Source of the DNA: Rhodospirillaceae bacterium
GTDB taxonomy: Bacteria; Pseudomonadota; Alphaproteobacteria; MPNO01; UBA2964
Assembly (NCBI GenBank): GCA_002719885.1
Contig: PBFH01000043.1
Span: 1-37,069, forward strand
Direction of reading: 5' to 3'
Length of the DNA stretch: 37,069 bases
Shown: positions 703-5,180 of the stretch, piece by piece
Numbering within the stretch: position 1 is the stretch's first letter
How the letters are laid out: the number at the start of each line of letters is the position of its first letter
Made by a program: the position numbers and the translations under genes
Notes under the pieces: generated by a model
What the model was told of the DNA's origin: nothing
Database searches by the model: none
The model's input: only the letters and a program-made list of their open reading frames with translations

Positions 703-779
703 CGCGGGGTGGAGCAGCCCGGTAGCTCGTCAGGCTCATAACCTGAAGGTCGTAGGTTCAAATCCTACCCCCGCAACCA
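703..779 (+). tRNA. initiator tRNA-fMet (CAT)
   Basis: This is a 77-nt cloverleaf with an encoded CCA end. The acceptor begins CGCGGGG and ends CCCCGCA, giving the unpaired C1-A72 that marks initiator tRNAs. The anticodon loop is CTCATAA, with stem TCAGG/CCTGA. The T arm GTAGG-TTCAAAT-CCTAC pairs perfectly. Its place after 5S matches the usual alphaproteobacterial rRNA operon. The 3' half from 735 on is repeated downstream, so the gene has evidently served as an integration site. Confidence 0.98.
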
Positions 780-822
780 AATCTCAGTAAGGGTTACAGA
801 GTTTTGAAGGGAAGTTACAAAA

Positions 823-860
823 TGGGTTTAGTCACTTTATAGTCACTAATAAAACCCAGT
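823..860. terminator. inverted repeat with internal phased repeats after tRNA-fMet; possible operon terminator or integrase arm site
   Basis: TGGGTTT (823-829) pairs with AAACCCA (852-858), followed by a short T-run. The 22-nt loop contains TAGTCACT twice, at 829-836 and 840-847, 11 bp apart. It could end the rRNA operon transcript. Equally, the phased octamers about 50 bp from the attachment core could be integrase-binding arm sites. The sequence alone does not decide between these. Confidence 0.35.
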
Positions 861-1062
861 TTTGACCGTCAGGTTCTTTTGGCAGACCTATTCTTTGAGT
901 GTTCACATTTATATATTTTTCGGAAACACCTTTGTTTTTATTCACGGCGGAGTAGAGGAGTTTAGTTATTAGAAGTATCATTACTATGGTGGAACTTTAT
1001 CTGAAAAAATGACTTACGAGGGTAGAATATTCACCCAGAGTAATATCAATACAAAAAAAAGA

Positions 1063-2280
1063 CTAGTTAAGTAATTTCATAACGCAGTCACCAAACTTCT
1101 CTGTGCCTTTTGTAAAACCTATTTCCGCACATTGTTCCTTTGCCCTATCAAGCGGTGATTTCTTCTTCTTAACTATAGGAGATACTTTGGGCGTAGAATT
1201 TTTAACCACAGCAGGTGAACTAGGAATATTTGTGGCACCAGATGCTTTGGCAATCTTAATACCTTCTGGATCTAGTTTAGCTCCAGCAAGGTCGGCTCCA
1301 ATAAGGTCAATTCCCTGAAGGTTGGCTCCATAAAGGTTGGCTTTTATAAGATAGGCAGTCTGAAGGTTGGCTCCCTGGAGGTTGGCTCCATAAAGGTTGG
1401 CATAACTAAGGTCTGCTCCCCAAAGGCGGGCTCCCCGAAGGTCGGCTCCTCGAAGGTTGACTTCCTGAAGATTACAATGTGGGCATGAGTTGGTCTCCCT
1501 TAATTTCTTTAAATGCTCGGGGTTATAAGTGGCGGTTTTCTTGGCAGTGACCGTGGATGGAGGTTTTCGGGCAGAGAGGAATTTATCATCTGCCCAAATG
1601 CCCTCTGTTATTTTTCCATTGGCAAAGGTATAAGTGGCTTGTCCGTGCTTTTTGCCATCCTTCCATTCACCAACGTATTTGTCCCCATTGGCAAAGGTAT
1701 AGGTGCCTTGTCCGTTCCTTTTGTTATCCCTGTGTTCACCAACGTATTTGTCTCCTGCCCATTTACTTTTAGGACCAAAGGTAAAGGTACCTTGTCCGTG
1801 ATATTTGTCATTCTTGAATTCACCAACGTATTTTGTCCCATCGGCAAAAGTAAAAGTGCCAAAGCATTCAGACCAGGGAGATTTTTTTGGGTGTCTCGCA
1901 GGAGGGCAAGGAGGCAGACCGCCTAGCTTTTGTACACTCTCTTTATTAATTTTGTAACGATCAAGAAATTGATTTGCGTTCCTAACAGTATTCAATACTG
2001 CACCCTTCTCACATCCCGCCATTCTAGCACTGGCATGTTTGCCTAAACCCTCTTCATATTCGTCTAGATCTCGTCCAGTTAAAATACTTTCAGCACGGGA
2101 CTGTACCTTCAATACCAAGTCACGGGTCTCGCTTACATTGCATAACTCCGCCCACATCAAATTACCGCCTAATTCGAACATTAGGGATTCATGTCTCCTA
2201 TCGATAACGCTCTGACCCCAGACATGTCCAGGCAACAACAGAAGTGTAAAACCCATCAGAACTGGCAGTATCTTTCTCAT
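1063..2280 (-). CDS. exported MORN-repeat plus pentapeptide-repeat protein
   Basis: The ATG at 2280 is preferred over a TTG 18 bases upstream because it gives a clean signal peptide (MRKILPVLMG..., cleavage near VWG-Q). The mature protein has an unrecognised Cys-containing region (about 25-130). Four MORN-type repeats follow (about 140-235, motif YVGEWKDGKKHGQ). Next come a CPHC pair and a run of A(D/N)L-x-x pentapeptide repeats (about 274-336). A KKKK stretch precedes a tail of the GTEKFGDCVMKL type that I recall in other marine alphaproteobacterial proteins. About 405 aa. MORN and pentapeptide repeats are protein- or membrane-contact scaffolds; no catalytic motif is visible. The gene lies alone between two tRNA 3' ends, so it may be island cargo. 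Confidence 0.85.
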   Translation of the reverse strand: MRKILPVLMGFTLLLLPGHVWGQSVIDRRHESLMFELGGNLMWAELCNVSETRDLVLKVQSRAESILTGRDLDEYEEGLGKHASARMAGCEKGAVLNTVRNANQFLDRYKINKESVQKLGGLPPCPPARHPKKSPWSECFGTFTFADGTKYVGEFKNDKYHGQGTFTFGPKSKWAGDKYVGEHRDNKRNGQGTYTFANGDKYVGEWKDGKKHGQATYTFANGKITEGIWADDKFLSARKPPSTVTAKKTATYNPEHLKKLRETNSCPHCNLQEVNLRGADLRGARLWGADLSYANLYGANLQGANLQTAYLIKANLYGANLQGIDLIGADLAGAKLDPEGIKIAKASGATNIPSSPAVVKNSTPKVSPIVKKKKSPLDRAKEQCAEIGFTKGTEKFGDCVMKLLN

Positions 2281-2372
2281 GTGATTAGCCTGCCACAATA
2301 TGAGAAGAAGTTAAAGTCAAACCTAGTTCCTCCAAGCCTCCTCAGAAATACACTTTACCTACCAACTGCTGC

Positions 2373-2427
2373 GACCTTCAGGTTCCTATCCTGACGGTCC
2401 AGTAAATCCCATTGACCTTCAGGTTCT
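2373..2427. repeat. inverted copies of the tRNA-fMet anticodon/variable segment, with hairpin
   Basis: GACCTTCAGGTT occurs at 2373-2384 and 2414-2425. It is the exact reverse complement of AACCTGAAGGTC at 740-751 in tRNA-fMet. The first copy also pairs with CCTGACGGTC (2390-2399) as a 10-bp hairpin with one mismatch. A variant, GACCGTCAGGTT, is at 864-875. These lie in the 308-base stretch between the MORN gene and the first tRNA 3' duplicate, where I see no gene. Confidence 0.5.
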
Positions 2428-2588
2428 GGTTGCAAATTAGGTTGCAAATAAACGATGTTTACTGAATATCAGTGATGTCGAATGTGACTTGACGAGGAAT
2501 CCCAAATCGGAATAGAATCAATGATTCCAAGGATTTAGCTTGGTTAATCAATGGGTTAGAAGGAGTGGTAATTTTTCGGCTTGTGAGA

Positions 2589-2635
2589 CTCATAACCTGA
2601 AGGTCGTAGGTTCAAATCCTACCCCCGCAACCAAA
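2589..2635 (+). repeat. tRNA-fMet 3' half duplicate (att-like), copy 2
   Basis: These 47 bp are identical to 735-781 of the intact tRNA-fMet, from the anticodon loop through CCA plus two flanking bases. Upstream the identity stops abruptly and no 5' tRNA half is present, so this is not a functional tRNA. Such 3'-end direct repeats are what site-specific integration into a tRNA gene leaves behind. Confidence 0.9.
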
Positions 2636-2682
2636 GCTGGAAGCCAAAAACCAGCTCCTTCCCCCAAGTAAAAATTCCCAAT

Positions 2683-4143: not shown

Positions 4144-4177
4144 GGGATCGAAGACCCTAACGCATGTCTGAACAAAT

Positions 4178-4252
4178 ACACCCGTAACTCACCTGGATAG
4201 AGCGCTACCCACCAAAGACAGAGGTCATAGGTTCAAATCCTACCCCCGCAAC
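4178..4252 (+). pseudogene. chimeric, degenerate tRNA: Arg-like 5' part, fMet-like 3' end
   Basis: ACACCCGTAACTCACCTGG and ATAGAGCGCTACCC match the 5' half and D arm of a bacterial tRNA-Arg. From 4222 on, the T arm and acceptor strand match tRNA-fMet with one difference over 31 nt. The acceptor strands (ACACCCG versus CCCCGCA) cannot pair, the anticodon stem has two mismatches, and the CCA end is broken. It is not a working tRNA. It looks like a recombination product between two tRNA-type attachment sites that then decayed. Confidence 0.7.
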
Positions 4253-4253
4253 A

Positions 4254-4297
4254 ATAAAATTAATGACTTAGTAGAAGTGCTAGGTCATTAATTTTAT
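4254..4297. repeat. 17-bp near-perfect inverted repeat
   Basis: The arms ATAAAATTAATGACTTA (4254-4270) and TAGGTCATTAATTTTAT (4281-4297) pair over 17 bp with one wobble, around a 10-nt loop. The repeat begins two bases after the chimeric tRNA. It could be a transcript end for the upstream membrane protein gene or an element-end structure. The 3' side has no long T-run. Confidence 0.55.
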
Positions 4298-4405
4298 GGA
4301 AAATGGCTTTGGTGCAAATTTGATGCTAGCAAATAACAGGTAAAGTAAGGTTACCGAAGGTAAACATGGGACACCCTGAGTTGCCGGCAACATATTGAAA
4401 TATCT

Positions 4406-4434
4406 GCAAGCCCGCTTGCCCGTCTTGCTTTTTT
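4406..4434 (+). terminator. possible hairpin terminator and palindrome in the 4144-4477 gap
   Basis: GCAAG (4406-4410) can pair with CTTGC (4424-4428), followed by TTTTTT. An alternative shorter hairpin uses CTTGC at 4415-4419. Just upstream is a perfect 12-bp palindrome, GTTGCCGGCAAC (4380-4391). The rest of this gap holds the chimeric tRNA and no gene that I can see. Confidence 0.3.
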
Positions 4435-4477
4435 CAGGCAGATATAAGGTCTGAGTCTGAAAATTTATAACTGACGA

Positions 4478-5086
4478 ATGTCCGAACCTATTTGCCTTTT
4501 AGTTTCCTGTCATCCGCTGAAGGATAGCCTTTGCCACCATCTGGTTGATCGAGTCAAATTAGGGTTAAAAGCGCACGGGATCGTATACGAACACTTAGAT
4601 CTCTATGCCGACGAATTTAGCGCGAGCCTGACATGGGCCGAACGGGAAAGCTATTTCACCGACGATTTCGACGATGCGGGGGTTGTAGACGAGATTGCCC
4701 AGCTTGTAAGTGCGAAGACCCTGATCCTCGTGTTTCCGACCTGGTGGTTCAATGTGCCTGCCCGGCTAAAGGGCTGGTTCGATCGGGTCTGGGTGCCGGG
4801 TGTCGCCTTCAACCATGCACCCGATAAGCGCACTATCATGCCAGCGTTGGAAGGCCTTAACCATTGCTTAGTCGTCACTACCCTGGCCTCGCGCTGGTGG
4901 GTCAACAACCTATTGGTGAGAAACCCGGTCAAACGGTTTATCAAGGGTGTAATGCTCAGAGGATGTGCCCCTCAGGTAAGCTACGAGATGCTGAGTTTCT
5001 ACAACGCGATCGGGGCGGACGAAGGGCGTGTCGACACCTTCCGAAAGCTTATCGATCAGGCAGTCGGAAGAATCGGCGACCAGTGA
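4478..5086 (+). CDS. flavodoxin-fold NAD(P)H:quinone oxidoreductase
   Basis: 202 aa, close to the usual length of the Flavodoxin_2/NQO1-KefF family: cytosolic FMN or FAD enzymes that reduce quinones with NAD(P)H. Visible marks are the N-terminal strand with SCHPLKDSLCH (phosphate loop), the family signature PTWWFNVPARLKGWFDRVW (about 88-106), and GVAF after it. GC content is clearly higher than in the AT-rich neighbours. The gene lies between two tRNA remnants (4178-4252 and 5136-5180), so lateral arrival by tRNA-site integration is likely. The exact substrate is not deducible. Confidence 0.88.
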   Translation: MSEPICLLVSCHPLKDSLCHHLVDRVKLGLKAHGIVYEHLDLYADEFSASLTWAERESYFTDDFDDAGVVDEIAQLVSAKTLILVFPTWWFNVPARLKGWFDRVWVPGVAFNHAPDKRTIMPALEGLNHCLVVTTLASRWWVNNLLVRNPVKRFIKGVMLRGCAPQVSYEMLSFYNAIGADEGRVDTFRKLIDQAVGRIGDQ

Positions 5087-5135
5087 GGTCGAAAAAGATT
5101 TGTCGGACCGAAATAGGAATCGCTTAACTGTCCGT

Positions 5136-5180
5136 GCGTCAGAGGCTAACAACCTGCAGGTCGCAGGTTTAAACCCTGCC
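5136..5180 (+). repeat. degenerate tRNA 3' end (att-like), copy 5
   Basis: The segment from GTCAG through AACCTGCAGGTCGCAGG to CTCCGCAACCA keeps a perfectly paired T stem (GCAGG/CCTGC) and a CCA end. The T loop is TTTAAAC instead of TTCAAAT/TTCGAAT and the anticodon region is scrambled (GGCTAACAA). No 5' half exists. It is the most diverged of the five tRNA 3' ends, perhaps the oldest or from another tRNA. It closes the array just before the MetE-like gene. Confidence 0.65.

What the first reader, a model, noticed from the sequence alone, without database searches (positions are those of the whole stretch)
735..5180. Five tRNA 3' ends in tandem: a serial integration site at tRNA-fMet
The intact tRNA-fMet (703-779) is followed, in the same orientation, by an identical 47-bp 3' half (2589-2635), a variant with compensatory T-stem changes (2832-2877), a chimeric copy (4222-4252) and a degenerate one (5146-5180). 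Each pair encloses non-core genes. Repeated tRNA 3' ends are the established footprint of tyrosine-recombinase integration. The graded divergence suggests several events of different age in one site downstream of an rRNA operon. No integrase is left, so the segments now look fixed.
Basis: partly seen in the sequence, partly recalled or inferred. Interest (0 to 1): 0.8.

Follow-up and report, generated by a model that had tools for sequence, protein, structure and literature searches.

The report
Decayed mobile-element array at initiator tRNA
Downstream of the initiator tRNA gene of an uncultured alphaproteobacterium lie four leftover tRNA tail ends, the scars of several phages or similar elements that inserted one after another at the same spot and then lost almost everything; the process is known, and this is an unusually compact and worn example.

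Summary
One intact tRNA-fMet (703-779) is followed in the same orientation by three 3' halves that begin at the anticodon loop (2589-2635, 2832-2877, 5146-5190) and by a chimera (4179-4252: tRNA-Arg-like 5' part, fMet 3' end). Outside the tRNA-derived DNA the flanks are unrelated, so this is not local duplication. The same fragment, with the same boundary, is the attP of many phage contigs: 97 of 120 viral hits are partial copies, and 66 have an integrase ORF within 1.5 kb. One (L151) assembles as a circle with fMet attP, integrase, primase and a MORN-repeat gene on the same side of attP as the window's MORN gene. DNA beside copy 4 is homologous to both att arms of podovirus-like contigs. The membrane-protein gene between copies 3 and 4 is 87% identical in another genus whose GlnE is only 49% identical; there it sits beside a decayed phage attP. 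Integrases lie between fMet and displaced copies in four other genomes of the class. No integrase trace remains on this contig. Not shown: which gene arrived with which element, and a matching empty site. Known kind, new instance.

The parts
703..779 (+). intact tRNA-fMet, the attachment site (5' part host, 3' part presumed delivered by the last element)
780..2588 (.). segment 1: remnant of an element of the L151 type; MORN/pentapeptide gene kept, integrase lost
1063..2298 (-). MORN + pentapeptide-repeat protein, similar over MORN repeats and C-terminal motif to the MORN protein of circular element L151
   Evidence: MORN and pentapeptide repeats are low-specificity
2428..2452 (+). pair of direct repeats GGTTGCAAAT at 12-bp spacing, arm-type integrase-site candidates upstream of copy 2
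2589..2635 (+). copy 2, displaced fMet 3' half identical over 47 bp; 3' flank shared with C8 copy
2636..2831 (.). segment 2: no gene; CGCCACAAA x4 (2683-2735) arm-type repeats
2832..2877 (+). copy 3, displaced 3' half with T-stem allele GCAAG/CTTGC that exists as an intact fMet in G263
3313..4143 (+). membrane protein without Pfam family; 87% aa homolog in G011 beside a decayed fMet-type phage attP
4179..4252 (+). copy 4: decayed tRNA-Arg(CCG)-like 5' part joined to fMet 3' end
4253..4322 (+). phage P' arm (with hairpin 4254-4297), homologous to contigs L078/L102/L173
4314..4410 (+). phage P-arm sequence, 80%/74% identical to the DNA upstream of attP in L102/L078
4478..5086 (+). flavodoxin-fold NAD(P)H oxidoreductase, cargo or stranded backbone
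5146..5190 (+). copy 5, most diverged displaced 3' half; outer border of the array

Best explanation
The anticodon-loop-to-3'-end half of tRNA-fMet is attB for tyrosine recombinases of temperate phages and small integrative elements. Each integration gives the intact gene the element's own copy of the 3' half and pushes the former 3' half downstream together with the element's other end. Repeated at the same gene, this leaves fMet followed by a row of displaced 3' halves, the oldest farthest away. Afterwards almost all of each element, including every integrase, was deleted. What remains is att arms and single genes (MORN protein, membrane protein, possibly the flavodoxin). Shown: fragments, boundary, unrelated flanks, phage and element homologs of the flanks, horizontal origin of the membrane gene, absence of integrase. 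Inferred: order of events, and which gene came with which element.
For: Copies 2, 3 and 5 are truncated in the anticodon arm, like partial copies across the order and 97 of 120 viral contigs, where identity to fMet ends 0-9 nt upstream of the anticodon loop. An integrase ORF lies within 1.5 kb of the fragment in 66 of those 97 viral loci, 49 of the 66 in the arrangement core-integrase on the same strand. L151 is circular (127-bp terminal repeat) with fMet attP, integrase, primase and MORN gene. DNA beside copy 4 matches both arms of the attP of L078/L102; L102 encodes T7-like virion proteins and a lysozyme. Copy flanks share no similarity outside tRNA-derived DNA (self-comparison). Direct repeats lie beside copies 1-3: 20 repeated 8-mer pairs at 2636-2831 against a 99th percentile of 3 elsewhere in the window. 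Membrane gene 87% identical in G011 while GlnE is 49%, beside an L059-like decayed attP plus a second P' arm at the contig end. Integrase between fMet and a displaced copy in G035, G064, G068 and G094. Copy 3's T-stem is a real fMet allele in G263.
Against: No integrase or phage structural gene is left in the array. No close relative with the same backbone shows the empty site. Copy 5 has no native tRNA terminator downstream, unlike displaced copies elsewhere. Copy 4's tRNA-Arg part and its junction in the variable loop do not follow from a simple anticodon-loop crossover. The P arm after copy 4 has no core directly after it. Exact 47-bp repeats shared by fMet, copy 2 and C8 could in principle have misled the assembly at those joins.
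Confidence: 0.9

Rival explanations
1. Local tandem duplication of the fMet region followed by decay.
For: All copies are on the same strand and within 4.5 kb.
Against: Similarity stops at the tRNA-derived DNA. The truncation point recurs in other genera and in viral contigs. Copy 3 has compensatory changes equal to another genus's fMet allele. Flanks of copy 4 are phage-like.
Confidence: 0.03
2. A cassette-like accretion array in which single genes bounded by fMet 3' ends are added and moved one at a time, by analogy with integrons.
For: Most segments hold one gene. The 933-bp membrane-gene module occurs in a different fMet-site context in G011.
Against: In G011 the module has no fMet 3' end on its other side within the stretch read. 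Known elements at this site are phages or ~10-kb elements with their own integrase. One interval has no gene.
Confidence: 0.05
3. Partial misassembly: some joins between segments are artificial because the 47-55-bp repeat is shared by fMet, copy 2 and contig C8.
For: Exact repeats of 47-50 bp; C8 ends 55 bp beyond its copy; the genome is a 52-contig assembly with 7% estimated contamination.
Against: Copies 3-5 share at most about 31 nt exactly, so those joins are unlikely to be affected. C8 has the same tetranucleotide profile as C33.
Confidence: 0.1

Closest known systems
Tandem tRNA-gene islands as defined by Islander (PMC4383910)
   Same: Intact tDNA followed in the same orientation by displaced 3' fragments, anticodon-loop crossover class; the paper lists 125 tandems of two or more islands and 4 of three or more among 3,919 islands.
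   Different: Islander requires an integrase in each member and at least 2 kb; here integrases are gone and the intervals are 0.2-1.8 kb, so it would not be called.
Temperate marine phages with tRNA attP, e.g. HTVC019P-type pelagiphages (PMC3861242)
   Same: Phage contigs carrying an integrase and an attP identical to part of a host tRNA; L102 encodes T7-like internal virion and tail proteins.
   Different: The site reported there for the HTVC019P-like phage is tRNA-Leu; here it is tRNA-fMet, and only att arms remain in the window.
Small integrative elements or phage satellites (L151 type)
   Same: 9.6-kb circle with integrase, primase/AAA protein, att at fMet, MORN gene.
   Different: The window keeps only a MORN gene with added pentapeptide repeats and att-like ends; satellite status of L151 was not tested.

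Membership tests
tRNA-gene integration site of tyrosine recombinases | intact tDNA plus same-orientation 3' fragment(s) downstream | tested here: met
tRNA-gene integration site of tyrosine recombinases | fragment boundary at a known crossover subsite (anticodon loop) | tested here: met
   copies 2, 3, 5 and viral attP; copy 4 deviates
tRNA-gene integration site of tyrosine recombinases | free element with matching attP | tested here: met
   L151 circle with attP identical over 55 bp to window 728-782
tRNA-gene integration site of tyrosine recombinases | empty site in a close relative | tested here: inconclusive
   G004, G005 and G016 have fMet followed by a terminator hairpin, but with a different backbone downstream
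complete tRNA-gene genomic island (Islander definition) | integrase gene inside the island | tested here: not met
   none on C33; met in relatives G035, G064, G068, G094. The locus is therefore filed as a decayed site, not as a complete or active island.
tandem island array | each interval derives from a separate element | tested here: inconclusive
   different arm repeats and different phage/element homologs for segments 1, 2 and 4, but the elements are nearly gone

The most novel reading that the evidence does not exclude
The fMet 3' ends act as a cassette array in which single genes with one att site are captured, kept and swapped between bacteria, an integron-like use of a tRNA attachment site.
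Probability: 0.05. Interest if true: 0.75.

Novelty: new member of a known kind. Interest (0 to 1): 0.3.

Why it matters
It shows how a tRNA hot spot beside an rRNA operon can keep a layered record of past insertions long after the elements are gone. Displaced fMet ends can therefore serve to find unknown prophages and satellites, and to assign viral contigs to alphaproteobacterial hosts.

Tried and rejected
MetE-like protein 5219-6460 as a synteny anchor: homologs are paralogous families spread over the relatives, not beside fMet, so no empty site could be reconstructed. Membrane protein in viral contigs: no relatives. MORN protein in viral contigs: two weak relatives (L182, L183) without an fMet fragment or tRNA. 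Local duplication rejected by the self-comparison. A contaminant origin of contig C8 judged unlikely from tetranucleotides. Sinorhizobium papers concern tRNA genes carried inside prophages and do not describe an fMet attB array in the passages read.

Full report
Observation. The window is one whole contig (C33, 37,069 bp) of a 52-contig, 2.78-Mb assembly. It begins inside 23S rRNA, followed by 5S and tRNA-fMet 703-779. blastn with the 77-nt gene finds four further same-strand copies with E between 3e-19 and 5e-9. Copy 2 (2589-2635) is identical over 47 bp. Copy 3 (2832-2877) has five changes, four forming two compensated T-stem pairs plus one loop change. Copy 5 (5146-5190) has eight. Copy 4 is a chimera: 4179-4234 resembles the tRNA-Arg(CCG) gene of contig C21 (87.5%), and 4222-4252 is fMet with one mismatch. 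A sixth displaced copy lies at the end of contig C8 and shares 18 nt of 3' flank with copy 2.

Not duplication. Comparing the region with itself, similarity between copies stops at the tRNA-derived DNA. Truncation at the anticodon arm is the same in displaced copies of other genomes of the order; there the fragment is usually followed by a terminator hairpin like those that follow intact fMet genes. This is the anticodon-loop crossover class that the Islander database counts for about half of tRNA-gene islands (PMC4383910). Copy 3's T-stem allele occurs as an intact fMet in G263, so it is a functional allele from another lineage.

The mobile partners. A scan of viral contigs for the 45-nt fragment stopped at 120 stretches of DNA. 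In 97 the fragment is partial, with identity to fMet ending 0-9 nt upstream of the anticodon loop. An integrase ORF lies within 1.5 kb in 66 of the 97, in 49 of these downstream on the same strand. L151 (IMGVR_UViG_3300025168_016823) has a 127-bp terminal repeat and so closes to a 9.6-kb circle. It carries fMet attP, then an integrase (PF00589, 97 bits), a primase/AAA protein and, on the other side of attP, a MORN-repeat protein. The window's MORN gene lies in the same position and orientation relative to its att site, and both proteins match PHROG 7324. Because MORN repeats are common, this match is suggestive rather than proof.

Copy 4. DNA 4222-4322 matches core plus downstream arm, and 4314-4410 matches the upstream arm, of contigs L078 and L102 (84-87% and 74-80%). 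The order core - P' - P is what an integrated phage leaves when everything between its ends is deleted. The core expected after P is missing; the flavodoxin gene follows instead, then copy 5. L102 encodes an internal virion protein, T7-like tail proteins and lysozyme, like marine podoviruses known to use tRNA att sites (PMC3861242). The tRNA-Arg/fMet junction lies in the variable loop, not the anticodon loop; its origin is unexplained.

The membrane gene. 3225-4157 is 85% identical to the end of contig C18 of G011, another genus of the family (protein 87%), while GlnE of the two genomes is 49% identical, so the gene moved horizontally. In G011 it follows a decayed but colinear P-core-P' region homologous to phage contig L059 over about 290 bp, and the contig begins in another copy of the same P' arm. 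That is a tandem of two insertions of the same kind at a site of this type, although the fMet gene itself is missing from that assembly.

Arm sites and integrases. Direct repeats at roughly one-helical-turn spacing lie beside copies 1, 2 and 3 (TAGTCACT at 829 and 840; GGTTGCAAAT at 2428 and 2440; CGCCACAAA at 2683, 2694, 2717 and 2727). The last group gives 20 repeated 8-mer pairs in about 200 bp, where the 99th percentile in the rest of the window is 3. The motifs differ, as expected for elements with different integrases. No integrase or trace of one is on the contig, although the genome holds ten integrase hits, several next to tRNA genes. Integrases between fMet and a displaced copy occur in G035, G064, G068 and G094.

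Verdict. A serial, decayed tyrosine-recombinase integration site at tRNA-fMet, confidence 0.9. The age order (distal copies older) and the assignment of genes to elements are inferences. The kind is known; the number of scars in 4.5 kb, the loss of all integrases and the tRNA-Arg/fMet chimera make it a compact and somewhat unusual instance. Caveat: the 47-55-bp exact repeats shared by fMet, copy 2 and C8 leave a small chance of a wrong join at copy 2.

Noticed in passing
G000 contig C21:9599-9656 (L048 about 820-910): A tRNA-Arg(CCG) gene beside an integrase carries an insertion of about 19 nt that can form a hairpin in its T loop and scores only at Rfam's threshold; possibly a damaged att site.
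   Followed up: partly
L028 13369-13465 (G004, same genus): The fMet gene has a 24-nt partial repeat of its own 3' end directly attached, so the first copy lacks the encoded ACCA; looks like a recombination scar.
   Followed up: no
window 864, 2373, 2390, 2414; also L025 about 260: Motif GACCKTCAGG, the reverse complement of the fMet anticodon-stem end, recurs beside the att copies (four extra hits, 0.08 expected in the whole window) and within 400 bp of the core in some viral contigs. Function unknown.
   Followed up: partly
L025 56-105 (G000:C8): A sixth displaced fMet 3' half with a terminator, bordering cytochrome c peroxidase and radical-SAM genes; implies a second fMet-type site or another insertion not joined in the assembly.
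   Followed up: partly
window 2590-2772, 2802-2966, 4910-5191 (- strand): Spurious ORFs such as GQDSNLRPSGYE arise from reading tRNA 3' ends backwards; a pitfall for gene callers.
   Followed up: no
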